From: an uncultured Carboxylicivirga sp.
Lineage (GTDB): Bacteria > Bacteroidota > Bacteroidia > Bacteroidales > Marinilabiliaceae
Direction: 5' to 3'
NCBI GenBank assembly: GCA_947491945.1
Contig: CANLLN010000002.1
Coordinates: 186,001-250,000, forward strand
DNA: 64,000 nucleotides
This document shows, in pieces, positions 17,304 through 37,391 of the stretch (position 1 is its first letter; each line of letters opens with the position of its first letter). The notes beneath the pieces are model-generated. The model was not told the origin of the DNA. It searched no databases and was given only the letters and a program-made list of their open reading frames with translations. Position numbers and translations under genes: made by a program.

Positions 17304-18425
17304 TCAATATTTTAATTCCTTAAACTCAACATCATCGTAGTCCCACTGCATCACATTGGCAATAGTTGGAATAACATGCTTTGCCATTTTTAGCTGTCCC
17401 CGGTAAGAAGGATGATAATCGGAACCCAGATCGCTTGACTTATTCAACAAGACAGTAGGGATACCGATAAAGAAGATGGCCTTATCGCCTCCAACGAGGC
17501 GGCAGTTTTCAACCACCTCTTTTACACTCGAATAAGCAGGTTCATCGAGCATGGGTCCGTTGAGGCAAAAAATAGGAATACTGCCATAGTTTTTTCGTAT
17601 CCGGCGAATAAATTTCATGTAAGTATCTACAAACACGGCCTTATCGGGACGTAAACCTGTTGAGTAATCATTGGTTCCCAGATTTATCACTACCGCATCG
17701 GGTTGCCACTCAGAAAAATCCCACCCTGTGCTTGCATCCATATCCAAAACCTGATGATAACGCTGTGGCATGGTGGCCAAAGTAGTAGATACTTTCTTTT
17801 TATCACCATAGTTGCGCACAACACCCAAACCCGAGTGCGCAGTTACATAACACTCCGCATCAAAGGCTCTGCTCACAATAAAGGCATAGGACTTGTTTAC
17901 ATTCTCTGTTTTGGGCAAAAAATCCTCTTCCGGACGCTCTCCTTCGGTGCCATACCCACAGGTAATGGAGTTACCAATAAATTCGATTCGACGCGCACCA
18001 AAGGGATTATATACATCCATGCGCTCCTTCCCGCCGATGCGCACTCCTTTGAAAATCGCGGTTCCCATCTCTCCTTCCGTACGCTTTTGAAGGCGACAGG
18101 TATGCCAACCATTGCCTTTAATGTTAGCAATGCCATATATAGTATCGTTAGGTGCATGCACAACTTCGTGCAGCTTATCATCGATAAAAACATTAAAGTA
18201 ATTGCGCGCTCCGCCTTCTATCACAAACGACAGCTGCTTACCTGTAAATTGAAAATATATAGACGTACCAGGCCAATCATATCGTACCGCCTTGGGATTT
18301 GTAAAATCGAAGCGCCCCGAATAAACAAAGGCCTTATTATCGGCGTCTACTTGCTTTTGCCCCTGCACACTCATGGCCGAACCAATTAAAATCATTCCAA
18401 CTATTAAACTTATTAGTACTCGCAT
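17304..18425 (-). CDS. Exported SGNH/GDSL esterase, CE2-like
   Basis: A 373-residue secreted hydrolase. A signal peptide (MRVLISLIVGMILIGSAMS, cut near residue 22) is followed by a beta-sandwich (about 30-135) and a SGNH domain. The sandwich-plus-SGNH order is that of carbohydrate esterase family 2, which removes O-acetyl groups from sugars. Catalytic blocks are visible: GNSITCG with Ser153, GTND at 250-253 and DYHPS with His338. It is the last gene of the SusCD-type locus. In the peptidoglycan context inferred here it could deacetylate O-acetylated MurNAc, but any O-acetylated glycan fits. A terminator-like hairpin ends only about 10-15 nt before its ATG. Confidence 0.85.
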   Translation of the reverse strand: MRVLISLIVGMILIGSAMSVQGQKQVDADNKAFVYSGRFDFTNPKAVRYDWPGTSIYFQFTGKQLSFVIEGGARNYFNVFIDDKLHEVVHAPNDTIYGIANIKGNGWHTCRLQKRTEGEMGTAIFKGVRIGGKERMDVYNPFGARRIEFIGNSITCGYGTEGERPEEDFLPKTENVNKSYAFIVSRAFDAECYVTAHSGLGVVRNYGDKKKVSTTLATMPQRYHQVLDMDASTGWDFSEWQPDAVVINLGTNDYSTGLRPDKAVFVDTYMKFIRRIRKNYGSIPIFCLNGPMLDEPAYSSVKEVVENCRLVGGDKAIFFIGIPTVLLNKSSDLGSDYHPSYRGQLKMAKHVIPTIANVMQWDYDDVEFKELKY

Positions 18426-18435
18426 AACATTATTT

Positions 18436-18472
18436 TTTTAAAAAAAGGACCTACCAGCAAGGGGCAAGTCCT
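18436..18472 (-). terminator. Terminator or attenuator immediately upstream of the SGNH gene
   Basis: Minus strand AGGACTTGCC (18472-18463) pairs over 10 positions (two G-U) with GGTAGGTCCT (18455-18446), followed by T7. The T-run ends about 10-15 nt before the SGNH start, so it either ends transcription from the GHL10 gene or attenuates SGNH expression. Confidence 0.65.
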
Positions 18473-18477
18473 AAGAT

Positions 18478-18615
18478 TTAGTAATTATTTAAAACCATGG
18501 TATACCCCATTTCGCTGTTAAAATTTTCATCAAAATGCTCATTTACGAGTAGTAACATCGCTTTTCTTCCATTTTCGACTTCAATCTGTTTGCAATTGAG
18601 GTTACTTATGACATT
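18478..18615 (-). pseudogene. Short coding-like remnant between GHL10 and SGNH genes
   Basis: A minus-strand frame open for 45 codons between stops, directly after the GHL10 stop. It has ordinary amino-acid composition (for example QIEVENGRKAMLLLVNEHF) but no start codon until a late internal ATG. It could be the end of a decayed gene or chance; no homology is claimed. Confidence 0.2.
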
Positions 18616-18619
18616 CTAT

Positions 18620-21406
18620 TTAATATTTTACTAGCTTAAGGGTTTTGATACCCAATTGCGTTTGCAACATTAATATATATATCCCTCGTGTTAGTTTTGA
18701 AGCAGGTATAAAGTACTCGTAATCGCCCGCTGCACGCTGTGAATTATCCAAAACCATTAATTCTACACCATTCAAACCATACACAACCAAACGCACAGAT
18801 GTTAAACCCGGAACACTAACTTCTACTCTTTCTAAATGATTACTTAATTGAGTTGAACAACTCAACTTCAAAAGATCCTCTATATTATCACCAATGTTTG
18901 TGGCACCAATACTAAACGTCCTTATTTCAGACCAGGTTGTATATAAGTTAGCCCCATAGTTAGCTCGAGCACGAAGGTAATACGTCTTAGAACCTAAATC
19001 TTCGAATACTCCTTTATATGTAAAAGCTTCAAGGCTTAGCACTTTCAGTCCAATCTCAGGAAAATGAAGCTCCTCACTCAACTCAAGAGTATAAGACGAT
19101 GCCAGATTACTCCCTTCTATCAAAACCTCTACCGAATTATCTTCGAACACTTCCTTCTCCATCGGCGAAATAATTCGTGGCACATCAGGCACTCCTTCGA
19201 TCGTTGAAAAGGCAATTACTTCACTCCACCCTGACATCACATCAGAAAAATCACCTTTAACCCTAAGGTAATAAGTTGAGTATGGTAACAACACCTTTTC
19301 GGGCATGACTAATGATGCCGCCATTAACCCATTTTTTTCAAATAGAATAGATGTAAAATCACTAGTCTCAGCAATCTGAACGGTATATATACCTCCCATA
19401 GTCGCATTATTCCAATTAATAGTTGGTGTTAGTGATACTTCTGTGGCGTTATTAACCGGCGAGCTGATTATAGTCGGTGAGGCATTTGCCATTGTAAACG
19501 AGCGAACTTCAGACAACTCATCACCAGCCCCCAACACGCGTGATTTTATGCGCCAATAATATATTTCGCCTACCTTTGGAGCAATCGTTGAAATATCAAA
19601 TTGCGTTTCCAACAACTCTCGCTTATATAAAATATCTGTAAAAGCCTCATCCTTTGCCACCTCAAGCACATAGCTTATCACTTCTGCACTATTTTGCCAT
19701 CGAAACAACTTAGCCAATTGCACTTCTTCCTTGTTAACAGGCTCTATTAATTGCGATGGCTGATTACTCCCAATTGTACCATCTAGCAATACTGGTGGAT
19801 ACTCATTACCAAAGCGATCGAGCACCGCAACCGCAAAAACATGTGTCTCTAATAACTCTGTATAAGATGAAAGATCAAAACTTTTTTGATAACTTACACC
19901 TAATAAATTTTGCGCACACACTAAATTAGTAACTGTTGATAATTCAGTTTTTGGCAAAGCATAAACAGTATACCTAACATTCGTTTCTGTAGATTCCCAC
20001 ATCAGTTTACCCTCCTCTATACGAAGATTACTTGACAAACTTCTGTCAGCAGCCGACTTCCAATTAATAGCTGGCACCAAAGCCTCGTACTTAAACTCAT
20101 TTGCTTTAAGGTAATCGACAAAGCCAGCTTTACTAAAATTATCGGTTCGATAAAATACACTACCTGGCGCACCCATTTTATCGGCCTGTCTGTTTACCTG
20201 TATCTGCATTCCATATTCAGAAGCCGTATTTTTAAGCTGAGGATTGCTTTTCATTGCCAAATATTCCAACATTGACATACCGTTTAACTCTACAGCAATA
20301 TCTCTGTTACTTCCCGACTTCAAAACAGTCGAAAATGATTCGGTCTTTAAATTACTTAAACTGTGGCTAACGTATAGATGACGATAAAAAGCATTACACA
20401 CATCAGACCACCAAGGACTTAACTTATCGTAATCCTGACCTGTACTTGTTGTAGGCCAGTAAATTTGAGGAGATATATAATCGACAGTTCCCGCCTTTAA
20501 CCACGCCAACGGATCGCAATAAATATCTTTGTATGCATCTAAACCAACTATTCCATCAGGCAGTTTGAAACCGTACTGGGCTGCCACTTTATTATCCGTC
20601 GTATAGATGCCAAATGGCGACAATCCGAAAGTAACCCAAGGCTTAACATCCTGAATAGCCCCATACACATCGCTAACCATTTCGTTAATATTAGCTCGTC
20701 TCCAATCATGCAAATCCAAGCCTTCAGGTTTGTGTAACCCCTGCGAGTAAGCATCCAAATTATCTGGTGTTCCACCATAAGCATAGAAGTAATCGTCAAA
20801 TGCAACACCATCCACATCGTAATTGTTTACAACTTCTTTTACGATGTCCACAATACGCTTACGAACCTCAGGGTTTCCTGGATCAAGAATAGCGACATTT
20901 TTTTTACCATCTTCTTTATCGGGGTATTCTAACACCCATTTAGGCTCAGTTTTTCTATAATCACCAGCAGCACCTTGATATTTCCCTGCCGATGATTCGA
21001 ATCGATAGGGGTTGATCCAGGCGTGCAATTCCATTCCTCGCTTATGCGCTTCCTCAATTGCAAAAGCAAGTGGGTCATAACCAGGATCGAGACCTCTTGT
21101 TGTAACTAAGTGAGCCGACCATGGCTCATATGACGATTTATACATGGCGTCACACTCCGAGCGCACCTGAAAAAATATCGAATTTATATTCGCTTCTTTC
21201 ATGTTGTCAAGCAAAGCAATAAGCTCATTCTTTTGCGCAGTAATCTCGCTTTGATTCCCCGTAGAAGACACCTTTGTAGATGGCCAATCTAAGCCCCAAA
21301 CTGTCGTTAGCCAAGTAGAACGCATCTCCCTTTTGGGCGCCTCAGCATTAGCCTTTGCCAACTGAGAAACTAGTAATACCATTAATATATGTAGAAGTTT
21401 ATTCAT
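18620..21406 (-). CDS. GHL10 (DigH/YddW-like) glycoside hydrolase with T9SS sorting domain
   Basis: A 928-residue secreted enzyme. Signal peptide (1-21), then the GHL10/DUF187 TIM-barrel domain from about 25 to 420: REMRSTWLTTVWGLDWPS, FFQVRSECDAMY, GMELHAWINPYR, VDGVAFDDYFYAYGGT and VDYISPQIYWP. Next come several fibronectin-III-like repeats (about 470-840) and a C-terminal type A sorting domain (about 850-928, ending GIYILMLQTQLGIKTLKLVKY split by strands), which directs export by the type IX system and attachment to the cell surface. E. coli DigH of this family cleaves peptide-free peptidoglycan glycan strands. A second GHL10 gene is at 34002-35702. Separated from the susCD operon by a strong hairpin. 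Confidence 0.9.
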   Translation of the reverse strand: MNKLLHILMVLLVSQLAKANAEAPKREMRSTWLTTVWGLDWPSTKVSSTGNQSEITAQKNELIALLDNMKEANINSIFFQVRSECDAMYKSSYEPWSAHLVTTRGLDPGYDPLAFAIEEAHKRGMELHAWINPYRFESSAGKYQGAAGDYRKTEPKWVLEYPDKEDGKKNVAILDPGNPEVRKRIVDIVKEVVNNYDVDGVAFDDYFYAYGGTPDNLDAYSQGLHKPEGLDLHDWRRANINEMVSDVYGAIQDVKPWVTFGLSPFGIYTTDNKVAAQYGFKLPDGIVGLDAYKDIYCDPLAWLKAGTVDYISPQIYWPTTSTGQDYDKLSPWWSDVCNAFYRHLYVSHSLSNLKTESFSTVLKSGSNRDIAVELNGMSMLEYLAMKSNPQLKNTASEYGMQIQVNRQADKMGAPGSVFYRTDNFSKAGFVDYLKANEFKYEALVPAINWKSAADRSLSSNLRIEEGKLMWESTETNVRYTVYALPKTELSTVTNLVCAQNLLGVSYQKSFDLSSYTELLETHVFAVAVLDRFGNEYPPVLLDGTIGSNQPSQLIEPVNKEEVQLAKLFRWQNSAEVISYVLEVAKDEAFTDILYKRELLETQFDISTIAPKVGEIYYWRIKSRVLGAGDELSEVRSFTMANASPTIISSPVNNATEVSLTPTINWNNATMGGIYTVQIAETSDFTSILFEKNGLMAASLVMPEKVLLPYSTYYLRVKGDFSDVMSGWSEVIAFSTIEGVPDVPRIISPMEKEVFEDNSVEVLIEGSNLASSYTLELSEELHFPEIGLKVLSLEAFTYKGVFEDLGSKTYYLRARANYGANLYTTWSEIRTFSIGATNIGDNIEDLLKLSCSTQLSNHLERVEVSVPGLTSVRLVVYGLNGVELMVLDNSQRAAGDYEYFIPASKLTRGIYILMLQTQLGIKTLKLVKY

Positions 21407-21503
21407 ACTTACAACTTTTTATAATTGTTTAATAACCTTTCGATATACGATAGAAAATTCATTACACTATTTGGACAAAACAACCAATGTAAATAAATAA
21501 CAG

Positions 21504-21540
21504 AAGGGTGTTGACTAATCATTGTCAACACCCTTTATTT
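21504..21540. terminator. Strong hairpin ending the susCD operon
   Basis: Perfect 12-bp stem AAGGGTGTTGAC (21504-21515) with GTCAACACCCTT (21524-21535), loop 8. T-rich tails on both sides, stronger on the plus strand. Confidence 0.65.
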
Positions 21541-21629
21541 TCGCAGCATCCTACTTAAGTAAGATACAATTTACGGTAATTAAGGTAATATACGTATTGG
21601 ATTCTTTCATACCCTTAATTAGCCACTGA

Positions 21630-23273
21630 CTATCTCTTAGTATTGTCTATTGCAATACCGTATGCTTCAACTCCTTCAACAAAATACTCAACCTTTGCAG
21701 TCGCATCAGTTAAGCTGATACGCTTAATACCTGATTTATGCAGTGGATTTTGATTATAATACTCCTCTGGGTTAACTCCGGCAGGAACTTCCGGTCCGCG
21801 GTAAGCCCAATATACATAGCCGTTACCTTGTTCGTCTACATCAACTGCAATACCTGTGATATACAACTTCTCAGTACCAGCCCCTTCACCGTCGCCAGGC
21901 GATGCATCAACCACCACTTCATCAGTACCATCTAAATTACTCTTGAACAATTTATAGTCGCCCTCTTTAGCATTTGAGTAGTATATTTTACCATTTACTT
22001 TATCAATAGCCATACCTCTAATACTTGAACTTATTGCAATAGCACCTAAACCATCAGCATTAGGATCGCTTCCCGGCATACCCGGAGCACCAATATGCTC
22101 TTCTCTAAATCGGAAAATACCTGACCCATTTGAGTTTTTACCATAATAGAAAACATCATCAGCCTTTAAGAAAGGTCCATTTACACGCCCCCAACCGATT
22201 CCGTTTCCATAGTACCATAACCATGAGTGGTGAAAATAATGCGAATATTGCTCTGTAGAGAACTTCATATTACGTGTTGATGCAGAAACTTTGTAAACAC
22301 CAGCATTTCTATCGGTCCAGTAGATAGACTCTCCTTCAACACATCCATAATAGAAATCATTATAAGTATGACCTCCAAAGTTATCAATGACCGTTTCGCG
22401 GCGTGAACCATCATGGGTGATGGCAAATATTTCGCCATCACCGGCAGTACCTGCCCCGGCAGTATAACTAGTGTAGGTACCCGCATCAAACACATACAAG
22501 TAATCGCCATTAAATTGTAGCGTTAACGGGTGCTTTCCTGAACGGTAACTAAAGTCAAAAGGCTTATTTACCGAAGGATCGACACCTTCAATAATCTTAT
22601 TAGCGAGAATATTACCTTCTTTAACCGCATAGTACAATGTTTTAACAGGCTTATTGTAGTTCACCTGAACATTTACAGTAACCGGGTCCAGCACCTTCTC
22701 ACCTACTTGAACAGTAAGGTTAACCACCTGGCTTCCTAATGTTCCAAATACAGCCTTAGGATCTTTAGCTGTTGACATTAATGCATCATCAATCTTATCA
22801 CCAGTTGTTCCTTCTGGGAATCGCCATTTATAGCTAACGTCGAGTCCCTCCGGATTCATTACAAATACATCAAACAACACCTCTGATTGATTAAAAACAA
22901 TACTTGCATCATCTGATTTGAAAGATACAATTGGCACGATATCACTAATCATAATCGCTTTAACCAGTTCGTATTTACCTCCATCAACAATCAGCTTCAC
23001 ATTATACGTACCAGGTACTGTGTACTTATGAACAGGATTATCCTCTTGAGACTTACTTCCATCGCCGAAGTGCCATTCGTAGGTTGAACCGACTTGTGAT
23101 TCGTTTACGAAAGTAATTTCTTCACCAATCACATAATGCAATGACTCTGAATGATAACTAAACTCAACATCTTTAGGCGGAAACGCTTCCACATCAATAT
23201 CTTGCTCACATGCTGATAGGCAAAGCAACGATGTTACAGCCAGTAAGCTAATACATTTCTTAAAATTTTTCAT
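21630..23273 (-). CDS. Surface lipoprotein with PKD domain and YWTD-type beta-propeller
   Basis: A 547-residue probable lipoprotein (signal with LCLSAC, Cys22). It carries a PKD domain (about 38-110, with YEWHFGDGS and YTVPGTYNVKLIV) and a second Ig-like segment (about 112-205). From 210 to the end it has propeller-like repeats with IYWTDRNAGVYKVS and KIYYSNAKEGDYKLFKSNLDG, the YWTD pattern. It has no catalytic motif I recognise, so it is likely a glycan- or ligand-binding surface protein of the utilisation complex, in the position where SusE/F-like binding proteins usually stand. Last gene of the four-gene susCD operon. Confidence 0.75.
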   Translation of the reverse strand: MKNFKKCISLLAVTSLLCLSACEQDIDVEAFPPKDVEFSYHSESLHYVIGEEITFVNESQVGSTYEWHFGDGSKSQEDNPVHKYTVPGTYNVKLIVDGGKYELVKAIMISDIVPIVSFKSDDASIVFNQSEVLFDVFVMNPEGLDVSYKWRFPEGTTGDKIDDALMSTAKDPKAVFGTLGSQVVNLTVQVGEKVLDPVTVNVQVNYNKPVKTLYYAVKEGNILANKIIEGVDPSVNKPFDFSYRSGKHPLTLQFNGDYLYVFDAGTYTSYTAGAGTAGDGEIFAITHDGSRRETVIDNFGGHTYNDFYYGCVEGESIYWTDRNAGVYKVSASTRNMKFSTEQYSHYFHHSWLWYYGNGIGWGRVNGPFLKADDVFYYGKNSNGSGIFRFREEHIGAPGMPGSDPNADGLGAIAISSSIRGMAIDKVNGKIYYSNAKEGDYKLFKSNLDGTDEVVVDASPGDGEGAGTEKLYITGIAVDVDEQGNGYVYWAYRGPEVPAGVNPEEYYNQNPLHKSGIKRISLTDATAKVEYFVEGVEAYGIAIDNTKR

Positions 23274-23294
23274 AATTCAACTTGGATTATAATT

Positions 23295-24143
23295 TTATAA
23301 AACTGTAACCACTTTTTCTTCTGAGAAATTCTCAACACCTAGGCCATTAACCACTCTGAACTTAGACTTTAATTGGTAAGATTTACTATAACCAACAAAG
23401 TATTCCATTTTATGAGGGTTATAAATCAACTCTTCAAGAGGTATATCTTTAACCAACTGAGTTAAAACAGGTACAGCCACCTCTTTCATCACCTTAACCT
23501 CAATAGTACTTCCTTCATTATCTGGATCAGGAACCTCTTTAACATCGAAATAGGTCTCATACTCTTCGGCAGTTACACTCTGCTGCTTATCAACCAAAAG
23601 ACCTTTAAGTAAATCATAATCCATCGACTCAAAAAAGCCTACATAGAAGCTTTCAATTACAGAAGCCGGGAAAAAGCGATCGATCTGCTTTTGATCGTAT
23701 TCCAACATATTATTGATCTGCGAAGATGATAGTGTGTAACTAATCGGAAATGCGTCCTCAATTACATACGAGAAGGTTTCTTTTCTGTAGTTATCAGCAC
23801 TGTGCTCATAAGCCTCAATCTTTTGAAATTCGCGTGCTAACTCTGCTGAATCAAGCGCAAACACGTAGCCGTTATAATTAGCTGTTAAGCTATATTTCAT
23901 AGCAGCATGAATAGAATACCAAAGCTCTAAGCTTTCGTACTGATCATCTTCAGACCAGTATTCTGTATAAAACCCAGCTTCAGCACCTGCACTCACATTA
24001 GCTACAGGAATCTCCATGTAAACATTAGCTGCTTTCTCACCTGTTTGAACCAAGTCATTGATTGGGTCGTTGATTTCGCAAGACGACAATGACCAAACGG
24101 CTGCCAGGCTAAAACCTATATATTTTAATATACTTCTTTTCAT
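23295..24143 (-). CDS. Hypothetical lipoprotein of the susCD operon
   Basis: A 282-residue protein with a lipoprotein signal (SLSSC, Cys22). It is acidic and rich in Tyr and Glu, and probably mixed alpha/beta. I do not recognise a domain. It lies 35 nt after susD and 21 nt before the PKD-propeller gene, in the same operon, so it is likely an outer-membrane-anchored accessory of the SusCD complex. Confidence 0.7.
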   Translation of the reverse strand: MKRSILKYIGFSLAAVWSLSSCEINDPINDLVQTGEKAANVYMEIPVANVSAGAEAGFYTEYWSEDDQYESLELWYSIHAAMKYSLTANYNGYVFALDSAELAREFQKIEAYEHSADNYRKETFSYVIEDAFPISYTLSSSQINNMLEYDQKQIDRFFPASVIESFYVGFFESMDYDLLKGLLVDKQQSVTAEEYETYFDVKEVPDPDNEGSTIEVKVMKEVAVPVLTQLVKDIPLEELIYNPHKMEYFVGYSKSYQLKSKFRVVNGLGVENFSEEKVVTVL

Positions 24144-24178
24144 TTGAAAATAACATTTTGAAAAACATTGATATTAGC

Positions 24179-25846: not shown

Positions 25847-25856
25847 GATTCATTCA

Positions 25857-28800
25857 TTAAAATGTGGCACTAATATTAAATAATACTGAACGTGTCATAG
25901 GAATTCCATTATAATCGATCCCCATTGTTCCCGCTCCATTTGAAGAACCAGTATAGTTCACTAGTGGGTCACTTCCTGAATAATTCGTTAATAACAGCAA
26001 ATTATTTCCTGTTAGAGATACCCTTAATCCCTCAATCCCACTACTCTTCACAAATTTTGAAATATCATAACCAACAGTTACGTTTTGAAGGCGAACAAAA
26101 GAAGCATCTTCAACAAAATTAGAACCAACGTTAGAGTAATAATTATTTGCAAACAATTGATCGTAAATTACTGGCGTTGTATTAGCCGCATAACTACCAT
26201 CAGCCTGCTCAACTACACCCTCAATCACCACTTCTCTATTACGATACTCACTTAAACGACCATCCATTCCGTTCGATACGAGTGTGCGACGTGTTCCATT
26301 TACCACATCACCACCTACTGACACATTGATTAAAGCAGAAAAGCTCCAGTTTCTATAATTAAATCGATTATCAATACCAAGTTTAAAATCAGCCTCCCTG
26401 TTTCCTAACAGCAGAGAAGGCGTTGCATCAATGACAGGATATCCTTCTTCATTTACGATTACCTCACCACTTTCTGTTCGCATATAGTCTTTACCGCTAA
26501 TAGCGAACACAGGTCCGTTAGCATATGAAGTTGGGCGAATATCTCCTACCTGACCAGCATAATGATAAACTTCCTGAACACCTTCTGGCATATCCCCTAA
26601 ACGACCTTTGTTGGTTCCGAAGTTAACAGCCATATTCCATCGAAAGTTAGCTCTTTGTAACATCTGCTGATCCCAAACAAATTCAAAACCCTTGTTTGTA
26701 ATTTCGCCTTCATTTCGTACTTGTAAGATACTACCAGTTGACGGTGACACCCTTACTGTTACAATCTGATCGCTTACGTTTGTATTATAATAAGCTATGT
26801 CTAAACGAGTTTTATTATTAAACAAACGTAGGTCAGCACCAATCTCCCACGACTCTGCAGTTTCGTTCTTTAAATATGGGTTACTTGTTACAGTAGGATC
26901 TACCCCATAACCACTGTCTGGGTGGCTAAACATTTTGAACACTCGTGCATTACGGTATGGTGATGTATCTTTACCTACTTGTGCCCAGTTGGCACGAATT
27001 TTACCAAAACTAATCAGGGGCGAATCAATGTTTAACAACTCAGTAAAAACAAGACCTCCCGTTACTGAAGGATAGAAATATGAGTTTTGATCTTTAGCTA
27101 ATGTACTTGACTTATCATTGCGCGCTGTAAAACTAATATGTGCAATACCATCGTAGTCAAGCTTAACTTCTCCAAACACACCATATTTGGCATATTCGCT
27201 ACGATACATCTCTTGATCTTCCTTATTTTTAACACCAAGATTGTTCATACTATAGAAGCCAGGTATTATAAAATGATATCCTCCGGCATTAGAACTTCTT
27301 CCACGTCGTTTTAAGAAATCAGCTCCAACCAAGGCATCCAACTTAAGTGAGCTATTAATATCATATGAATAACTAGCAATAGCGTTAACGTTAGTCAACT
27401 CTGAACGACCATCAGAATACCACATTTGTCCAAGGTATGGAAGCGACTCCGATGTCGCTGTTTCATTGGGGCCTAATGGCCATCTTTCAGTAATCACACT
27501 TTGGCTTTCGCTATTAGTTATATCATAACTTGCACGTCCTGTAAGGTTAAGGTTATTAATAGGCTCCCAAGTAATACTTGCCTGCGTTAAAGATCTTAAG
27601 CTTTTACTTTCAGCCTGATCCTCATGGCGTCCCCACAATGGATTTACTGGTGACTTATATTTATTATTAGTATTCTCATACAACCAACGAATGCTTCCAT
27701 CAGGATTCTTGTAGTTAGAAATATCATCATCTATTGGCCATGTATACACACTAGCCATATTACCACCCCCTCTAGACGTTTTATCTGTTAGGTTTACCAT
27801 AAGAGAAACCTTTAAGTTGTCCCGAATTTGATAATCATTTTTTAACATCACACCTAAACGCTCCAAATTGTCATTTGGCACAATACCTTCATGATCGGTA
27901 TACGTTACAGATGCATATGATTGAAACTTTTCAGTACCACCAGAAATAGCAACATCATGCTTATGGAAGATTCCCGTTTGTAAATAACTATCCACGTTAT
28001 CATACGTTTGTATTCCTTCTGGTTTAAGCGGTCCCCAACCACCTTTTGATTGCTCACGGTAAACACCTAATCCACCGCGAAGGTAAGAGTCTTGAATCTC
28101 TGGTGTACGGTAAGCTTCTTCTACTCTAAAAGAACTATTCCAATTAACAGATACTTTGCCTTCTTCACCTTGCTTAGTAGTAATTACAATAGCACCGTTA
28201 GCCGCATCAGCTCCATAAAGGGCGGCGGCGGCAGCTCCTTTTAACACAGTTACACTTTCGATATCCAATGGGTTAATTTCAGCCGCCTTGGAAGCTCCAC
28301 CGGCAACATACATACCGTTCAAGATAAAAATAGGCTCGTTATTTGCTCCCGTATCGAAAGAAGTAATTCCTCGAATGTACATCTGTGAAGATGCGTTTGG
28401 AGAACCTCCCTGTCCAGCCAAAGTAACACCAGCAATACGACCATCAAGAGCCTGAACAAAGTTCGGCTGCTTATCCCGGTTGATTGCCTCCGCTTTTACA
28501 TCTTGAACTGCAAAGTTTAGGTTCTTCTTTTCTGTTGAAACCCCCATTGCAGTCACTACAACCTCATCAATACCCAGTGAATCATCTTCTAAGGTAATGT
28601 TAATTGTGGTATTCGCTCCAACCAAAACCTCCTGCGACTTGAAGCCAATAAATGAATATGTTAGCGTTGACCCAACTGGAGCTTCAATTTTATACTCTCC
28701 ATCCATGTTGGTTATTACCCCCGTTGTAGTTCCTTTCACTACAATGTTTACACCAGGCAAACCAAACCCTGTTCCGTCAACTACCTTTCCACGTATTACT

Positions 28801-28952
28801 AGGTTCTGCTGAGAAACACTAGCATTAACTGTGGACAAATTACTTTCAGCTGAAGCAACCTGGTTAGTCAGCCAAAATAAACTTAGACACAAGCAAGCTT
28901 TAGCTACATTGCTAAGGCCTCTTCCTGCCCGATCTTTCCATCTACTTTTCAT
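25857..28952 (-). CDS. susC: SusC-like TonB-dependent outer-membrane transporter
   Basis: A 1031-residue SusC/RagA transporter. Signal peptide (1-36), carboxypeptidase-regulatory-like domain (about 50-125, with GLPGVNIVVKGTTTGVITNM), TonB-box-like EVVVTAMG, plug domain (VQALDGRIAGV, YIRGITSFD), then the 22-strand barrel ending in SVLFNISATF. It would import an oligomer captured by SusD using TonB energy. The substrate is not readable from the sequence, but the neighbouring enzymes point to peptidoglycan fragments (inference). No anti-sigma-interacting extension (STN domain) is seen, so ECF-type transenvelope regulation is unlikely. Confidence 0.95.
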   Translation of the reverse strand: MKSRWKDRAGRGLSNVAKACLCLSLFWLTNQVASAESNLSTVNASVSQQNLVIRGKVVDGTGFGLPGVNIVVKGTTTGVITNMDGEYKIEAPVGSTLTYSFIGFKSQEVLVGANTTINITLEDDSLGIDEVVVTAMGVSTEKKNLNFAVQDVKAEAINRDKQPNFVQALDGRIAGVTLAGQGGSPNASSQMYIRGITSFDTGANNEPIFILNGMYVAGGASKAAEINPLDIESVTVLKGAAAAALYGADAANGAIVITTKQGEEGKVSVNWNSSFRVEEAYRTPEIQDSYLRGGLGVYREQSKGGWGPLKPEGIQTYDNVDSYLQTGIFHKHDVAISGGTEKFQSYASVTYTDHEGIVPNDNLERLGVMLKNDYQIRDNLKVSLMVNLTDKTSRGGGNMASVYTWPIDDDISNYKNPDGSIRWLYENTNNKYKSPVNPLWGRHEDQAESKSLRSLTQASITWEPINNLNLTGRASYDITNSESQSVITERWPLGPNETATSESLPYLGQMWYSDGRSELTNVNAIASYSYDINSSLKLDALVGADFLKRRGRSSNAGGYHFIIPGFYSMNNLGVKNKEDQEMYRSEYAKYGVFGEVKLDYDGIAHISFTARNDKSSTLAKDQNSYFYPSVTGGLVFTELLNIDSPLISFGKIRANWAQVGKDTSPYRNARVFKMFSHPDSGYGVDPTVTSNPYLKNETAESWEIGADLRLFNNKTRLDIAYYNTNVSDQIVTVRVSPSTGSILQVRNEGEITNKGFEFVWDQQMLQRANFRWNMAVNFGTNKGRLGDMPEGVQEVYHYAGQVGDIRPTSYANGPVFAISGKDYMRTESGEVIVNEEGYPVIDATPSLLLGNREADFKLGIDNRFNYRNWSFSALINVSVGGDVVNGTRRTLVSNGMDGRLSEYRNREVVIEGVVEQADGSYAANTTPVIYDQLFANNYYSNVGSNFVEDASFVRLQNVTVGYDISKFVKSSGIEGLRVSLTGNNLLLLTNYSGSDPLVNYTGSSNGAGTMGIDYNGIPMTRSVLFNISATF

Positions 28953-29258
28953 TAATTATTGATTTAGATTCGACTTATTTAGCTAGTTTAAAACTGTAAT
29001 TAAATGACTTTAGATATACATCATACATCATTCAATTATTTTACAATTTTAAACAATTTAATGCATTATTCAAATTTATTTTAATTTTTGTCAATAAATA
29101 ATATATCGCTGATTAATTGATAGATAAGGAATATATGGCGATAATTACTGTTTTATAACATGTCATACAAGTGATTTTTTTGCAGAAAAACACTTGTCAT
29201 TTATATGCTATATAGAAACACCTATCATTGTTAAGTCACTTAATATCTGAAAGAAATT
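28953..29258. other. AT-rich intergenic region upstream of susC
   Basis: This stretch of 306 nt has no gene and is strongly AT-rich. It contains a minus-strand TAAATTTG (29078-29071) as a possible -7 element, the tandem half-site-like string TACATCATACATCATT (29017-29032), and an inverted repeat at 29167-29197. It separates the three-gene upstream unit from the susCD operon, so susC probably has its own promoter. Confidence 0.5.
29167..29197. repeat. Inverted repeat in the susC upstream region
   Basis: ACAAGTG (29167-29173) and CACTTGT (29191-29197) flank an inner T-run/A-run pair, giving a stem of about 12 bp with a 2-nt bulge. It lies about 60 nt beyond the metallophosphatase stop; it may end that transcript or stabilise it. 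There is no T-tail. Confidence 0.4.
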
Positions 29259-31109
29259 CTATTGGACTTTCATCTTAGCAATCTTGCCATCCATTGTATT
29301 AAACCACAAACCATCGTTCCAAAACAACTTATTTACGGAAGAGTTAGAGATCTTATGGCGCCATAATGTAGTCTGTGTTTTCGCATCTACTGCAAAAACT
29401 TCACCTGAGCGTGTACCTCCATAAACGACACCATTTACTTCAACTAACGGGCACGGATTATGCTCATAACCAAAGCCAACATTAGCGGTCCACAAACTTT
29501 GATGCGTCTTACCATGCGTTGGGAAAGCAACAATAGAATCATTCATCAGCTTAGCGTAAATATGCTTTTTATCGCCAGAAATACACATTGATTCACGTAC
29601 TTGATGAGACTTAGTACGATAAATCTCCGACCCATCATTTAGGTCTAATACTGTAAAGTACCTGTCTGGTGCTACTATAAACACCTTATTATTCGCTACG
29701 GCAGGCACAACATTTCCGGGTGAGTACAATATAGCTCCGTGACCATTGGTCCATTTCCAGTTTAGACTGCCGGTTGCCTTATCAAGACAGTATAAGTATT
29801 TATCCCAAGCACCAAAAATTAATTCTTTGTCTGTAATACAAGGCTTTGCCTGAACAAAGCCTCCAATATTATTATAGGTCCAGATAACCCTCCCATTTTG
29901 TGGGTCTATTTTTGTGAATCCTCCTTTACCACAAGCAATGTAAAGCGAACCATTATCAATGACCCCTTCTGCAAAAACTGGATAACCAACATTCGTCTCC
30001 CACTTCATCGTACCTGAAGTCAAATCAAAAGCCTTTAAATCCCCTAGTGATGTACCAACAATAACACTATTTTTATATATCGTTGGAGTTGCATACTGAG
30101 GCGTCGATAGGAACTCCTGCCATAGGACGGTGTTTGTTTCTGCATCAAAAGCTTTAAGATAACCATCTGACGACAACCAGCTAATAATAGTGCCATCCAT
30201 CGCAAATCCGCCCATTACAGACGCATCATCATTAACAATAATTTGCGCTGCTACATTCGGGTATTTCTCATTAATCTGCATTGAGGGCATTACAGACACA
30301 GGTAATGTATCAATTTGACTTACTCCACATAAGTTCCAATCACGGTATAACTGAGCTGCTTGCCCACATTTCTTCTCTTCAACAAACACTTGGTCACCAT
30401 TCAGGGTTACAATCGTATATCCAACATCCTCTTTGTTCTTACCAATAAGCGCCCGCCCCATTAAGCCTGTAATGCCATTAAAGTTCATTAGTCTCAATCG
30501 ATGACCGTGTCCACACAAAGCCAATGATACCCCTTTGGCTTTCAACACTTCACTCACTTCTGGCCAATTATCCAGACCGTCTGCTATTGGATAATGAGCC
30601 ATTGAAATAAGCTTGATATCTTTAGCTTCAGGCAACTCGCTTTGAAGCCATTTCAGATCTTCACTTTTTACATGACCGTCGCCCATTTTCATATAAGGCC
30701 CCGCATTAAAACCCACGAATCCATAGCCATTATGCTCAAAGTAAAATCGATCCGCTCCAAATAGCTTCTTATAGGTAGCACCACCTGTTTCAGACCAGTT
30801 CGTTTCATGATTACCAGGTAAAATATAATAAGGTATTGTCAGGCCATCGACGCCATCCTTAACTGCATGCAGTTCCTCATCTGATCCCATATTGGTCAAA
30901 TCGCCAGTGATGACTACAAAATCAAAATCACCCTTATTAATCTCTTCCACCACCAAATCAAGCACATGCTCATTGTCATTACCAGGAACAACATGTAAAT
31001 CAGTTAAAAATGCAAAACGTACACTTCCTTCTTGTTTGCACGATACAAAGCCACTTACTAACACCACAGTCAGTAACAGCACTATTGTTTGACGAAATTT
31101 TAAAAACAT
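29259..31109 (-). CDS. Calcineurin-like phosphoesterase fused to PQQ-type beta-propeller (lipoprotein)
   Basis: A 616-residue protein with a lipoprotein signal (SGFVSC, Cys25). The metallophosphatase domain (about 30-250) has the metal-binding motifs FLTDLH, VITGDLTNMG, LPGNHETNW, MAHYP and GHGHRLR, all intact. From about 285 to the end there are PQQ/BamB-type propeller blades, seen as repeated LKAFDAETNTVLWQ, LKAFDLTSGTMKWET, FTKIDPQNGRVIWTY, LYCLDKATGSLNWKW and VFAVDAKTQTTLW. It probably acts on a phosphoester outside the cytoplasm. Substrate unknown; in this locus a phosphosugar or teichoic-type phosphoester is conceivable. It is 29 nt after the FAD gene, in one operon with it. Confidence 0.85.
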   Translation of the reverse strand: MFLKFRQTIVLLLTVVLVSGFVSCKQEGSVRFAFLTDLHVVPGNDNEHVLDLVVEEINKGDFDFVVITGDLTNMGSDEELHAVKDGVDGLTIPYYILPGNHETNWSETGGATYKKLFGADRFYFEHNGYGFVGFNAGPYMKMGDGHVKSEDLKWLQSELPEAKDIKLISMAHYPIADGLDNWPEVSEVLKAKGVSLALCGHGHRLRLMNFNGITGLMGRALIGKNKEDVGYTIVTLNGDQVFVEEKKCGQAAQLYRDWNLCGVSQIDTLPVSVMPSMQINEKYPNVAAQIIVNDDASVMGGFAMDGTIISWLSSDGYLKAFDAETNTVLWQEFLSTPQYATPTIYKNSVIVGTSLGDLKAFDLTSGTMKWETNVGYPVFAEGVIDNGSLYIACGKGGFTKIDPQNGRVIWTYNNIGGFVQAKPCITDKELIFGAWDKYLYCLDKATGSLNWKWTNGHGAILYSPGNVVPAVANNKVFIVAPDRYFTVLDLNDGSEIYRTKSHQVRESMCISGDKKHIYAKLMNDSIVAFPTHGKTHQSLWTANVGFGYEHNPCPLVEVNGVVYGGTRSGEVFAVDAKTQTTLWRHKISNSSVNKLFWNDGLWFNTMDGKIAKMKVQ

Positions 31110-31138
31110 GGATTTAATTATGATAAGGTTAAACTATA

Positions 31139-33967: not shown

Positions 33968-34001
33968 TGTTTTAAATTTAAATCAACTTCACTTTCTCAA
34001 C

Positions 34002-35702
34002 TTATTCAGGCAACACTTCAAGCACATCCTCATTAGTTGGCCGCTCGCAATTGGCCTGCTCCAAGGCTGCTACCTTCTTATTTTCCTCTCCTATCAATAA
34101 TTTAAGCTCATCTAATGAGGGTAATAAACACTTACTCATACTTTCCGCATTAAATGAAAACGGCTTGCTAACATGTCCGAATACATTCACCGATTGAATA
34201 GTAATGACATTCAACATCTCTACTAAATCCTGCATATCCGAACTTTCTGATAACTCTTCCGGCGTAAGGTCTTTACAACGGTAAGGATCGAACATGTAGG
34301 AGCGCTCGTATCTTCCCACTATTTCATAATCCCACTTATCGCCATATTGAAAGCCAATCACATAAGATGCCATTTGCTGCTTATGGGAATCTTCCCAACT
34401 TACCTTGATCCTAGTATCATGCTCCTCAATCTGGCACACAGGCACTTCAGGCACTTTCTTTCCAAGCCATGGTGACGCAGGCACCAAAGCAGCCTGCCTA
34501 AAAGGACCGCTTTTTAGAGTAGTAGTTAATTCTTCAGATTTAAGCATAGCATTCATATTCCAATAAACAATTCCGGGGCTCTCACTCAACATCCCACGGG
34601 CTATCATTATTTGGTTAAACGCCTCATCAGCCTCGCTTGATCCTTGCTTAGCTTTGGGACTTATACCGGGCCAAAAATGGCGATCTTTAACATTTTGTTC
34701 ATCCCACCAGTTAACCAAAACAGGAAAACTTTGTGGCATTTGGTTAATCGGCCAATATAATTGTGGGGTCCAGTAATCAATCCATCCCTTATTCAGCCAT
34801 AGCTTGGCATCTGCATACAATACATCATACTGGTCAAGACCCTTTATGGATGCGGGATGATTAGGCCGCCAAACACCAAAAGGACTGAGTCCGAACTTAA
34901 CATGGGGTTTTTCTGTCTTAATACCTTTGTATACACGCTTCATAAATCGATTAACAGCATCGCGTCGCCAATCAGCTCTCGACAACCGTCCTCCTTTATC
35001 AAGATACTTGTTCCAGCTATTATCATCCGGAAAATCTTTCCCGCCATGATAAGACGGATAGGGATAGAAATAATCATCAAAATGAATGCCGTCAATATTA
35101 TAACGCTTTACAACATCCATCACCACATTAAACGAATAATCTTGCGTCCCTTGCTCGGTGGGTATCATCCAATAAAAGCCATTATCTAGTTCAGTAATTA
35201 GTTCAGGATGCGTTTTAACGATTGAATTGTCACTCATCTCTCCACCACTCGTATGATGAGCTCTATAAGGATTAAACCAAGCATGAAACTCCATTGCACG
35301 CTTGTGAGTTTCCTCAATCCAGAATTCGAGCGGATCATAATAGGGATCAGGCGCCTGTCCTTGTTTACCAGTTAAATAGTAAGACCATGGTTCCAACGAA
35401 GAATCATAAAGTGCATCACACTGCGGTCTTACCTGAAAAATAATCGCATTAAAATTGTTCTCTTTTAAAAAATCTAATAAATGAACGGCTTCTTTCTTTT
35501 GCTCATCCACTGAAAGACCTGGCTTACTGGGCCAGTTAATATTGGCCACGGTTGCAATCCAGGCAGCTCTGAATTCACGATTCACATCGGGCGTTGCGGA
35601 ATACTGTTCGCCGGTCATTTTATCATTAGCAAAACGAGATATACTGCACTGAGAAAAAACTAATACAAAAATTAAAAAACCTAAACTTAATCGCTTATTC
35701 AT
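34002..35702 (-). CDS. GHL10 (DigH/YddW-like) glycoside hydrolase, probable lipoprotein
   Basis: A 566-residue GHL10/DUF187 protein without the fibronectin and sorting domains of its paralogue at 18620-21406. The barrel runs from about residue 38 to 420: REFRAAWIATVANINWPS, IFQVRPQCDALYDSS, FHAWFNPYRAHH, IDGIHFDDYFYPYPS, and DYWTPQLYWPINQ. The start at 35702 (MNKRLSLGFLIFVLVFSQC) gives a signal sequence with a Cys that could be lipidated, though Gln before Cys makes the lipobox atypical; the longer frame adds 17 residues that do not fit a signal. First gene of a minus-strand operon with the FAD and metallophosphatase genes. Activity on glycan strands is inferred from E. coli DigH. Confidence 0.87.
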   Translation of the reverse strand: MNKRLSLGFLIFVLVFSQCSISRFANDKMTGEQYSATPDVNREFRAAWIATVANINWPSKPGLSVDEQKKEAVHLLDFLKENNFNAIIFQVRPQCDALYDSSLEPWSYYLTGKQGQAPDPYYDPLEFWIEETHKRAMEFHAWFNPYRAHHTSGGEMSDNSIVKTHPELITELDNGFYWMIPTEQGTQDYSFNVVMDVVKRYNIDGIHFDDYFYPYPSYHGGKDFPDDNSWNKYLDKGGRLSRADWRRDAVNRFMKRVYKGIKTEKPHVKFGLSPFGVWRPNHPASIKGLDQYDVLYADAKLWLNKGWIDYWTPQLYWPINQMPQSFPVLVNWWDEQNVKDRHFWPGISPKAKQGSSEADEAFNQIMIARGMLSESPGIVYWNMNAMLKSEELTTTLKSGPFRQAALVPASPWLGKKVPEVPVCQIEEHDTRIKVSWEDSHKQQMASYVIGFQYGDKWDYEIVGRYERSYMFDPYRCKDLTPEELSESSDMQDLVEMLNVITIQSVNVFGHVSKPFSFNAESMSKCLLPSLDELKLLIGEENKKVAALEQANCERPTNEDVLEVLPE

Positions 35703-35785
35703 CCTATATAATACTTTTGAGTTTTTGAACCCTTCTTTTATCCAACCATACATGCACTAGTTAATCAATGCTTTTTTGAAGTATG

Positions 35786-35800
35786 TTGTATTACATCTTA
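35786..35800. promoter_or_regulatory. 15-nt repeated element, copy 1 (possible operator)
   Basis: TTGTATTACATCTTA, identical to copy 2 at 36111-36125. Its core TGTATTACA is an inverted repeat (TGTA-T-TACA). It lies just downstream of the minus-strand -7 element of the GHL10 gene, where a repressor could block initiation. Confidence 0.5.
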
Positions 35801-35807
35801 CACATAG

Positions 35808-35837
35808 CAAAGATAGTGCTTTTTAAATATTTTCAAA
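35808..35837 (-). promoter_or_regulatory. Promoter of the GHL10-FAD-phosphoesterase operon
   Basis: Minus strand TTTG (35837-35834), 18 nt, then TATCTTTG (35815-35808): a full match to the Bacteroidota TTTG / TAnnTTTG pattern, about 105 nt before the GHL10 start at 35702. Confidence 0.55.
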
Positions 35838-36105
35838 TATTCATAACACTTTTTCATATCAACCACTAAGTAAAAAAAGTAAATAACAACTCAATAAAGC
35901 CATTAACCACTGTATTTCATATACATGGCCTTAAGAACACCAACAACCATCAACCCTAAACATCATTTACAAGACCAAATAAAGTCGCTTAAAACCCAAA
36001 AATTATTTGGTTAAAAGTGCCAAATAAACAATAACCACCTTTCAGGCTTATACCCTCATTCAGCGTTAATATCAATATTTATAGGGAATTTTAAATTATA
36101 GATAG

Positions 36106-36113
36106 TATATTTG
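36106..36113 (+). promoter_or_regulatory. -7 element of the namZ promoter
   Basis: TATATTTG matches TAnnTTTG, 45 nt before the namZ start. No good -33 TTG at 18-21 nt, so the promoter may depend on an activator. Confidence 0.45.
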
Positions 36114-36125
36114 TATTACATCTTA
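36111..36125. promoter_or_regulatory. 15-nt repeated element, copy 2 (possible operator)
   Basis: TTGTATTACATCTTA, an exact copy of 35786-35800 in the same orientation. It overlaps the 3' end of the namZ -7 element and runs into the expected transcription start. Confidence 0.5.
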
Positions 36126-36158
36126 TAAGCTTGTGTAAACTAAAATTGTGTTAATTTT

Positions 36159-37391
36159 ATGAAGAAAATTGTTTTTTTAGCCTTACAGTTATTAATCTGT
36201 GGCCTTCTATCTGCCCAAAAGGTAAAGACCGGTATTGAGGTTCTTCAGCAGCAAAACTTCGATCCCCTAAAACATCAACGCATCGGCCTCATTACCAACC
36301 CAACAGGTATTAATAGTACCTTTGAGTCGACCATAGACATCCTGCACAAGGCGCCGCACGTAGAACTGGTAGCAATGTACAGTCCTGAACACGGTGTACG
36401 TGGCGATTACTCGGCCGGCGATCAGGTGGGCTTTTTTAAGGATCCCAAAACCAATGTGCCTGTTTACAGTCTTCACGGCAAACACAAAAAACCCACAGCC
36501 GAAATGCTCAAGGGCATCGATGTGTTGGTTTATGACATTCAGGATATTGGCTCCCGCTCCTACACTTATATCAGCACCTTAGGCTTGGCTATGGAGGCAG
36601 CCGCTGAAAACAATATTAAATTAGTGGTGCTGGATCGGCCTAATCCGCTTGGAGGAGAAAAGATGGAAGGAATGATTACAGAGCCTGAATTCACCTCCTT
36701 TGTCAGCCAATTTCCTATCCCTTATGTACATGGACTTACAGTAGGCGAGCTGGCTATTTTTCTTAATGAAGAGGGATTACTGAAGGATGGCCTGAAGTGC
36801 GACCTGGAAGTCATCAGCATGCAGGGCTGGAAACGAAAAATGTCATTTGAGGAAACCAAACTACCCTGGGTTCCTTCATCACCACACATACCCCATGCTC
36901 ACTCGTCTTATTTTTACCCGGTGAGCGGCATATTAGGTGAGCTATATGTTTATAATATCGGGGTCGGCTACACCCTTCCCTTTCAGGTTTTTGCAGCCCC
37001 TTGGATCGATGCCGACAGCCTGACAAATAAGCTGAATGCACTCGATCTGCCTGGCATCACATTCCGCCCGGTTCATTTTAAACCTTACTATAGCGTATCA
37101 AAAGGTACCCTTGTGCATGGTGTACAAGTTCACTTCACCAACTACAAAGAGGCTCCCCTATCGCTCATTCAATTCTATGTGCTGCAAGAAGCCCATCAAC
37201 TATGGCCACAGCACGATGTATTTAAAATGTGTGACCCTTCGCGACTAAGCATGTTTGATAAGGTAAGTGGTAGCGACAAGGTGCGAAAGACTTTTACGAA
37301 GCACTGGCGCGTGGATGACATAAAAGACATGTGGTACAGTGATATTGATGACTTTAGAAAAAAAGCGCAACAATACTTCTTATATGAGTAA
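36159..37391 (+). CDS. namZ: NamZ-type exo-beta-N-acetylmuramidase (DUF1343, GH171)
   Basis: A 410-residue DUF1343 protein with a signal peptide (MKKIVFLALQLLICGLLSA). Family blocks are clear: YSPEHGVRG (74-82), VYDIQDIGSRSYTY (124-137), LDRPNPLGG (158-166) and WVPSSPHIPH. The founding member, Bacillus subtilis NamZ (YbbC), removes terminal MurNAc from the non-reducing ends of peptidoglycan strands; whether this homologue does so is inferred from family. It is divergent from the nine-gene SusCD-type locus and carries the same putative operator as the GHL10 promoter. Probably periplasmic: no lipobox or sorting domain. Confidence 0.88.
   Translation: MKKIVFLALQLLICGLLSAQKVKTGIEVLQQQNFDPLKHQRIGLITNPTGINSTFESTIDILHKAPHVELVAMYSPEHGVRGDYSAGDQVGFFKDPKTNVPVYSLHGKHKKPTAEMLKGIDVLVYDIQDIGSRSYTYISTLGLAMEAAAENNIKLVVLDRPNPLGGEKMEGMITEPEFTSFVSQFPIPYVHGLTVGELAIFLNEEGLLKDGLKCDLEVISMQGWKRKMSFEETKLPWVPSSPHIPHAHSSYFYPVSGILGELYVYNIGVGYTLPFQVFAAPWIDADSLTNKLNALDLPGITFRPVHFKPYYSVSKGTLVHGVQVHFTNYKEAPLSLIQFYVLQEAHQLWPQHDVFKMCDPSRLSMFDKVSGSDKVRKTFTKHWRVDDIKDMWYSDIDDFRKKAQQYFLYE

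What the first reader, a model, noticed from the sequence alone, without database searches (positions are those of the whole stretch)
17304..37391. Candidate peptidoglycan/MurNAc-scavenging SusCD locus
One SusC/SusD locus combines two GHL10 (DigH-like) hydrolases, a NamZ/DUF1343 exo-muramidase, a CE2-like O-acetyl esterase, a D-lactate-dehydrogenase-type flavoprotein, a metallophosphatase-propeller lipoprotein and two further lipoproteins. GHL10 and NamZ families act on peptidoglycan glycan strands, and MurNAc carries a D-lactyl ether, so the pieces form a coherent route: cut strands at the surface, import, release MurNAc, use lactate. SusCD systems are mainly described for plant, algal and host glycans; one for bacterial cell wall would be notable. 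MurQ, AmpG and NagZ are not in the window, so cytosolic steps would have to be elsewhere.
Basis: partly seen in the sequence, partly recalled or inferred. Interest (0 to 1): 0.82.

Follow-up and report, generated by a model that had tools for sequence, protein, structure and literature searches.

The report
Bacterial cell-wall scavenging gene locus
A gene cluster in a bacterium of the Bacteroidales looks built to cut bacterial cell wall at the cell surface and import the pieces as food, which would extend a well-known sugar-import system to an unusual target; this is predicted from genes alone and has not been tested in the laboratory.

Summary
In detail: all ten genes are at the stated places and profile searches confirm the families. 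The peptidoglycan reading gains strong comparative support. Orthologs of this SusC/SusD were examined in 36 genomes. Within about 10 kb of SusD, a GHL10 enzyme is found in 29 of 36 loci, MurQ in 9, MurK in 8 and Amidase_3 in 9, against 0 of 20 for each at control SusCD loci. MurQ precedes SusC in the same direction by 17-155 bp in seven loci. In the family relative G015, the SusCD core, an amidase, an NlpC/P60 protein, an epimerase-like protein, NamZ, an AmpG-like permease, MurK and MurQ lie within about 47 kb of one contig; in the window's genome AmpG-MurK-MurQ sit on another contig. Limits: NamZ is not enriched within 10 kb (3 of 36 vs 1 of 20), 18 of 36 loci show no peptidoglycan-specific neighbour at that distance, the window's genome lacks NAGPA and a close epimerase, nothing is tested biochemically, and a murein-linked PUL was already noted in one mussel symbiont (PMC10199937). 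Filed as a new variant of a PUL.

The parts
17304..18425 (-). CE2-type O-acetyl esterase; predicted to remove 6-O-acetyl groups (on MurNAc under the peptidoglycan reading)
   Evidence: Pfam CE2_N 1.4e-24; NCBIfam AxeC2 5e-42, below cut-off; 68% identical homolog at the end of the same gene string in G004 (L038)
18620..21406 (-). GHL10b: GHL10 glycan-strand enzyme, 928 aa, with a weak T9SS-like C-terminal tail
   Evidence: Pfam 5e-66; only PDB hit Cwp19 5oq2 E 1e-75; NPYR and FDDY motifs kept; tail scores 16.0 bits with a home-made T9SS profile, while Pfam and NCBIfam gave no T9SS hit
21630..23273 (-). PKD plus probable beta-propeller surface lipoprotein, possible glycan-binding protein
   Evidence: Pfam PKD; 33 of 36 ortholog loci, 0 of 20 controls; lipobox-like motif
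23295..24143 (-). 282-aa lipoprotein without a Pfam family; Ig-like beta-sandwich with a helical region
   Evidence: 31 of 36 ortholog loci, 0 of 20 controls; AlphaFold2 model mean pLDDT 90.2; only generic sandwich matches, best Z 11.1, rmsd 2.8 over 100 residues
24179..25846 (-). SusD-like lipoprotein (SusD-like_2)
   Evidence: Pfam 2e-32; 57-62% identical orthologs in 4 of 59 relatives; only distant PDB homologs
25857..28952 (-). SusC-like TonB-dependent transporter
   Evidence: Pfam barrel, plug and CarbopepD_reg_2
29259..31109 (-). Calcineurin-like metallophosphoesterase fused to a PQQ-type beta-propeller, lipobox-like motif
   Evidence: Pfam; 59% identical homolog at the same place in G004; homologs in the same stretch as a NamZ gene in L097, L103, L115, L133, L162
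31139..33967 (-). FAD plus Fe-S 2-hydroxyacid dehydrogenase, candidate D-lactate dehydrogenase
   Evidence: Pfam; NCBIfam GlcD and YdiJ hits below cut-off; within 6 kb of NamZ in 14 of 24 genomes, within 216 bp in 10
34002..35753 (-). GHL10a: second GHL10 enzyme, 583 aa
   Evidence: Pfam 6e-65; only PDB hit Cwp19 E 1e-72; 68% identical homolog in G004
36159..37391 (+). NamZ-family exo-beta-N-acetylmuramidase
   Evidence: Pfam NamZ_N and NamZ_C; best PDB hit 4k05 E 5e-161; 76% and 74% identical homologs in G004 and G015 near the same locus

Best explanation
The locus is a polysaccharide utilization locus for peptidoglycan. Secreted or surface GHL10 enzymes cut glycan strands (Cwp19-like lytic transglycosylase or DigH-like hydrolase chemistry), helped by a CE2 esterase that removes 6-O-acetyl groups. 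The PKD and 282-aa lipoproteins hold the strands. SusC/SusD imports the fragments through the outer membrane with TonB energy. In the periplasm GHL10 and NamZ trim them and release MurNAc. An AmpG-like permease brings products in; MurK and MurQ, on another contig in this genome, turn MurNAc into GlcNAc-6-phosphate and D-lactate, and the FAD/Fe-S dehydrogenase oxidises the D-lactate. Shown here: gene families, conservation, and clustering with MurK, MurQ, AmpG-like, amidase and NlpC genes. Inferred: substrate, locations, direction of flow, and the role of each enzyme.
For: Families confirmed. Both GHL10 proteins have Cwp19 as their only PDB sequence hit; Cwp19 is a shown peptidoglycan lytic transglycosylase (PMC6016235, passages). 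Against 20 control SusCD loci from 12 of the same genomes: GHL10b 29/36 vs 0/20 (p 1e-9), NAGPA 19 vs 0 (p 2e-5), Amidase_3 9 vs 0 (p 0.012), MurQ 9 vs 0 (p 0.012), MurK 8 vs 0 (p 0.021), any of eight peptidoglycan families 18 vs 2 (p 0.0024). MurQ lies 17-155 bp before SusC, same direction, in 7 loci and 508 bp before it in one. In G015 one contig carries, over about 47 kb, the SusCD core, amidase, NAGPA, dehydrogenase, epimerase-like, NlpC/P60, NamZ, AmpG-like, SpoIID, MurK and MurQ genes. The window's genome has AmpG-like, SpoIID, DUF4922, GT2, Golvesin, MurK and MurQ genes together on contig C11, like the T. forsythia MurNAc operon (PMC5388701, passages). NamZ and the dehydrogenase are near neighbours in 14 of 24 genomes.
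Against: No experiment. NamZ lies within 10 kb of this SusD in only 3 of 36 loci vs 1 of 20 controls (p 0.55). 18 of 36 loci show none of the eight peptidoglycan families within 10 kb, some because contigs end. The window's genome lacks a close L-Ala-D/L-Glu epimerase (best E 5e-5) and any NAGPA; no amidase, NlpC, NAGPA or epimerase remnant is in the window. The BLAST queries came from ortholog loci, which favours that side. Only 20 of about 53 control places were read; by coordinates at least 3 of the 53 (one of them read) lie within about 5 kb of a NamZ paralog. MurQ alone is common (27 of 60 genomes over cut-off). GHL10 is not peptidoglycan-exclusive: DogH was reported on starch (PMC9967864). 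The SusCD is patchy: 11 of 393 genomes of the order. Genomes share ancestry, so p-values overstate independence.
Confidence: 0.83

Rival explanations
1. Recovery of the cell's own shed wall: the same enzymes and transporter retrieve fragments lost during growth, so this is peptidoglycan recycling with an outer-membrane retrieval step and not feeding on other bacteria.
For: The cytosolic partners (AmpG-like, MurK, MurQ) are recycling genes; the SpoIID/GT2/MurK/MurQ cluster also occurs in genomes without this SusCD ortholog, such as G011 and G007.
Against: Relatives carry large amidase and NAGPA proteins with T9SS sorting domains, which point to action outside the cell; the SusCD is in only 11 of 393 genomes of the order, odd for a housekeeping step.
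Confidence: 0.2
2. Peptide import: SusC/SusD takes up stem or cross-bridge peptides released from peptidoglycan, and the glycan is handled by other routes.
For: Relatives carry amidase, NlpC/P60 and epimerase-like genes; one distant PDB homolog of the SusD is BT_2263 (E 1.7e-5), recalled as peptide-linked.
Against: None of the ten genes scanned in the window is a peptide-cutting enzyme, while GHL10, NamZ and CE2 are glycan-directed families; MurQ is the tightest cytosolic neighbour of SusC.
Confidence: 0.1
3. Another glycan: the GHL10 enzymes and the SusCD target an alpha-glucan, capsule or host N-acetylated glycan, with NamZ and the dehydrogenase next door by chance.
For: DogH of the GHL10 family is reported to act on starch (PMC9967864, passages); CE2 resembles acetylxylan/glucomannan esterases; NamZ proximity alone is not significant.
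Against: MurK, MurQ, AmpG-like and Amidase_3 neighbours in several lineages and none at the 20 controls; GHL10 active-site motifs match Cwp19.
Confidence: 0.07

Closest known systems
Murein-associated PUL of the Urechidicola mussel symbiont (PMC10199937, Fig. 5)
   Same: two susCD pairs on one contig with murQ, ampG, an L-Ala-D/L-Glu epimerase, an amidase, GH171 and a GH10 entry; [quoted passage not shown]
   Different: Flavobacteriaceae; substrate left open in the text; whether its SusCD is orthologous was not tested here; the PKD and 282-aa lipoprotein core is not described in the section read
Tannerella forsythia ampG-murTKQ operon (PMC5388701)
   Same: AmpG, ybbC (recalled as the NamZ gene), lytB, glycosyltransferases, murK and murQ; resembles the cluster on contig C11 of the window's genome
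   Different: the terms SusC, SusD and TonB gave no occurrence in that paper; the operon covers inner-membrane and cytosolic steps
Canonical Sus-type polysaccharide utilization loci
   Same: SusC/SusD pair, surface lipoproteins, glycan-active enzymes and an esterase in one string
   Different: the predicted substrate is bacterial cell wall; no regulator among the ten genes scanned
Cwp19 of Clostridioides difficile (PDB 5oq2)
   Same: only PDB sequence hit of both GHL10 proteins; Arg132 and Asp195-Asp196-Tyr197 of Cwp19 align with NPYR and FDDY
   Different: Cwp19 has cell-wall-binding repeats and acts in autolysis (PMC6016235, passages)

Membership tests
Sus-type polysaccharide utilization locus | adjacent SusC/SusD pair | tested here: met
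   Pfam, 10 bp between the genes
Sus-type polysaccharide utilization locus | co-localised, co-conserved glycan-active enzymes | tested here: met
   GHL10b beside SusCD in 29 of 36 loci vs 0 of 20 controls
Sus-type polysaccharide utilization locus | induction by and transport of the glycan | not testable with these tools
   needs culture and binding assays
MurNAc catabolic pathway (AmpG-MurK-MurQ type) | MurQ etherase in the genome | tested here: met
   G000:C11:40653-41417, over the TIGR00274 cut-off
MurNAc catabolic pathway (AmpG-MurK-MurQ type) | MurK-type BadF kinase beside MurQ | tested here: inconclusive
   L113:9763-10605, BcrAD_BadFG 1.2e-6 but 28.7 bits vs a cut-off of 31.5; ends 3 bp before MurQ; kinase specificity not tested
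MurNAc catabolic pathway (AmpG-MurK-MurQ type) | AmpG-family permease | tested here: inconclusive
   G004 copy hits TIGR00901 at 1.4e-53 but 182 bits vs a cut-off of 350; a 90% identical copy is on G000:C11
GHL10 (PF02638) | profile score over the curated cut-off | tested here: met
   223.3 and 219.9 bits vs 27.9
GHL10 (PF02638) | peptidoglycan-cleaving activity | not testable with these tools
   residues match Cwp19 but another member has another reported substrate (PMC9967864)
NamZ exo-muramidase | both NamZ domains over cut-off | tested here: met
   284.8 and 135.9 bits; catalytic residues not checked
D-lactate dehydrogenase (FAD/Fe-S) | assignment to a D-lactate-specific model | tested here: inconclusive
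   GlcD and YdiJ models hit below cut-off; near NamZ in 14 of 24 genomes

The most novel reading that the evidence does not exclude
This is a dedicated outer-membrane import system for foreign, partly Gram-positive, cell walls: the metallophosphatase-propeller here, and the NAGPA phosphodiester glycosidase at the same locus in relatives, strip wall teichoic acid (NAGPA cutting the GlcNAc-alpha-1-phosphate bond that ties it to MurNAc, chemistry recalled) so that GHL10, amidase and NamZ can digest the strands that SusCD then imports.
Probability: 0.22. Interest if true: 0.78.

Novelty: new variant of a known kind. Interest (0 to 1): 0.62.

Why it matters
How larger peptidoglycan pieces cross the outer membrane of Bacteroidota looks open: the two T. 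forsythia papers searched by term here deal with AmpG and other inner-membrane or cytosolic steps and gave no SusD or TonB occurrence (the one 'susc' hit is the word susceptibility). A conserved SusCD next to murQ names a candidate transporter with a direct knockout test. If true, bacterial wall becomes a PUL substrate with a gene signature that can be sought in sediments, digesters and guts.

Tried and rejected
NamZ as the marker of this SusCD: rejected, because it is not enriched within 10 kb (3 of 36 vs 1 of 20); it is found instead near the dehydrogenase, the NlpC/epimerase genes or AmpG-like genes.

Remnants in the window of the genes it lacks (NAGPA, amidase, NlpC, epimerase, transglutaminase): none by tblastn at 1e-3. 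Bacteroidetes-type promoter pattern (consensus recalled): 5 matches vs 2.58 expected, 15 of 100 shuffles as many, so not significant, though one lies about 55 bp upstream of GHL10a. Rfam: nothing over threshold in 14000-40000.

Fold of the 282-aa lipoprotein: Foldseek and VIA-align gave generic Ig-like and arrestin-like sandwiches, so no function follows. Homologs elsewhere in the phylum: of 9 places in 8 other genomes, 2 keep both the PKD and GHL10 genes and 7 do not.

Literature. Searches were noisy because short terms match unrelated words. Of what was opened, only PMC10199937 ties SusCD to murein genes; most listings were not opened. PMC7768429 (one passage) says Petrimonas mucosa most probably can use peptidoglycan, from its glycoside hydrolases, with no SusCD link in that passage.
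Full report
What is there. Ten genes occupy 17304-37391. Nine are on the minus strand: GHL10a, an FAD/Fe-S dehydrogenase and a metallophosphatase-propeller protein with gaps of about 30 bp; then after 306 bp SusC, SusD, a 282-aa lipoprotein and a PKD lipoprotein with gaps of 10-35 bp; then GHL10b after 223 bp and a CE2 esterase after 194 bp. NamZ is divergent on the plus strand. The flanks are ordinary: a DEAD-box helicase, a radical SAM protein and a CoA-ligase-like protein on one side; peptidase T, an ORF without a Pfam match and a prolyl-tRNA synthetase on the other.

Where it comes from. The window is G000:C2:186001-250000. A genome of the same genus, G004, has a contig of the same length, with the same SusD, as the named record JAOARW010000090.1, a Carboxylicivirga sp. 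MAG. So the genus is probably Carboxylicivirga; this is inference.

Orthologs. Of 60 genomes (own included), 44 have a SusD-like match; 4 relatives have 57-62% identical orthologs, and the other 39 only hits below 30% or so over most of the length. A scan of named genomes gave 26 loci, all in Bacteroidales-type records or MAGs. An even draw from the order gave 11 of 393 genomes at E up to 1e-60, own included.

Control. Neighbours within about 10 kb of SusD were compared between these 36 loci and 20 other SusCD loci from 12 genomes that carry the ortholog. One search offered about 53 such places; 20 were taken, mostly spread over genomes and on longer contigs. Counts, 36 vs 20: PKD protein 33 vs 0; 282-aa lipoprotein 31 vs 0; GHL10b 29 vs 0; NAGPA 19 vs 0; Amidase_3 9 vs 0; MurQ 9 vs 0; MurK 8 vs 0; AmpG 2 vs 0; NlpC 4 vs 0; dehydrogenase 4 vs 0; metallophosphatase 2 vs 1; NamZ 3 vs 1; epimerase-like 4 vs 1. 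Any of NamZ, Amidase_3, NlpC, epimerase, AmpG, MurK, MurQ, SpoIID: 18 vs 2 (p 0.0024). Leaving the epimerase out and dropping G004 and G015, which supplied the amidase, NlpC, AmpG, MurK and MurQ queries: 17 of 34 vs 1 of 20 (p 0.0005). 18 of 36 show none of the eight at this distance, some on short contigs. The queries favour the ortholog side and the genomes are related, so the p-values flatter the result. By coordinates, at least 3 of the 53 control places (G063:C159, read; G072:C638 and G084:C189, not read) lie within about 5 kb of a NamZ paralog, so NamZ-linked SusCD loci are not limited to this family.

Link to MurNAc catabolism. MurQ precedes SusC in the same direction by 17-155 bp in L052, L053, L056, L058, L059, L062 and L154 and by 508 bp in L147; in L041 one gene lies between. 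In L059 and L154 the contig or stretch begins at MurQ, so MurK is not seen. AmpG, MurK or MurQ are within 10 kb in 11 loci (L040, L041, L052, L053, L056, L058, L059, L062, L147, L151, L154), and on the same contig farther off in G004, G015 and G071. The arrangements differ between lineages, which argues against one frozen neighbourhood.

Relatives' extra enzymes. In G015 and G004 the same string carries an Amidase_3 protein with a T9SS sorting domain, a PD40-type propeller protein and another T9SS-tailed protein of 455-466 aa; G015 also has a NAGPA protein with that tail. Upstream are an NlpC/P60 protein, an MR_MLE protein closest to the DgcA and L-Ala-D/L-Glu epimerase models (below cut-offs) and a transglutaminase-like protein. 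The window keeps none of these. In G015 all of this, NamZ, an AmpG-like permease, MurK and MurQ lie on one contig within about 47 kb (C1:905-952 kb). In G004 the string is split between two contigs: SusD to MurQ on C78; the SusD end, the lipoproteins, GHL10b, the amidase and CE2 on C29. The window's genome has two Amidase_3 genes over cut-off and one weak match elsewhere, one further full-length GHL10 gene and a partial match, no NAGPA and no close epimerase.

Cytosolic steps. They are on contig C11 of the same genome: AmpG-like, SpoIID, GNAT, DUF4922, GT2 and a Golvesin protein with a weak amidase hit, then MurK and MurQ on the other strand. This is syntenic with G004 contig C78, where it follows NamZ. 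The order resembles the T. forsythia operon from Tanf_08345 to murQ (PMC5388701, passages). The AmpG-like and MurK assignments fall below the curated cut-offs. NagZ was not searched.

Enzymes. Both GHL10 proteins match Cwp19 over the domain and keep NPYR and FDDY, which align with Arg132 and Asp195-Asp196-Tyr197, named as likely active-site residues in PMC5765458 (passages). Cwp19 produced 1,6-anhydro-muropeptides (PMC6016235, passages). That DigH is a GHL10 protein is recalled; the DigH paper (PMC12288456, passages) calls it a denuded-strand hydrolase and does not use the term GHL10. DogH, reported to act on starch (PMC9967864, passages), shows the family is not restricted to peptidoglycan. 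That CE2 enzymes favour 6-O-acetyl groups, and that MurQ releases D-lactate, are recalled.

D-lactate. The FAD/Fe-S protein matches GlcD and YdiJ models below their cut-offs. Position helps: of 24 genomes whose locus-type NamZ neighbourhood was read, the dehydrogenase is within 216 bp in 10 and within 6 kb in 14; a far copy in G069 is not counted. G079 and G080 have such a NamZ but were not read.

Prior art. [quoted passage not shown] So a murein-linked PUL is not wholly new.

Verdict. A peptidoglycan-scavenging PUL, confidence 0.83; a new variant of a known kind. The bolder reading, a system for Gram-positive walls that also removes teichoic acid, rests on NAGPA (19 of 36 loci, but not in this genome) and the metallophosphatase, for which PMC11488536 (passages) cites teichoic-acid precedents for calcineurin-like enzymes and fusions to NAGPA and PQQ propellers; probability 0.22.

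Noticed in passing
L037:11716-12957, L032:6388-7581, and homologs in L042, L047, L051: The epimerase-like MR_MLE proteins begin with a twin-arginine-type stretch and a lipobox-like Cys, suggesting an exported epimerase; the L156 copy lacks it in the ORF read.
   Followed up: partly
L115:3234-7958, L117:2303-6995, L123:8759-13360: Genomes G011, G007 and G017, without this SusCD ortholog, have a different SusCD (SusD_RagB type) beside the epimerase-NlpC-NamZ genes, a second kind of cell-wall-linked transporter.
   Followed up: partly
L133, L097, L162: A NamZ paralog (32-40% identical) sits with a metallophosphatase-propeller gene; L133 and L097 also have SusC/SusD there.
   Followed up: no
L126:13785-16250: 821-aa fusion of a GH9 domain and a polysaccharide deacetylase domain, between the SpoIID and AmpG-like genes.
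   Followed up: no
L112:4511-6352 and L126:16298-18229: AmpG-like permeases of 613 and 643 aa; in the latter the TIGR00901 model matches in two separate stretches, as if an insertion splits it.
   Followed up: no
window 41318-42931 and 42966-44573: Two adjacent ORFs of 537 and 535 aa without a Pfam match.
   Followed up: no
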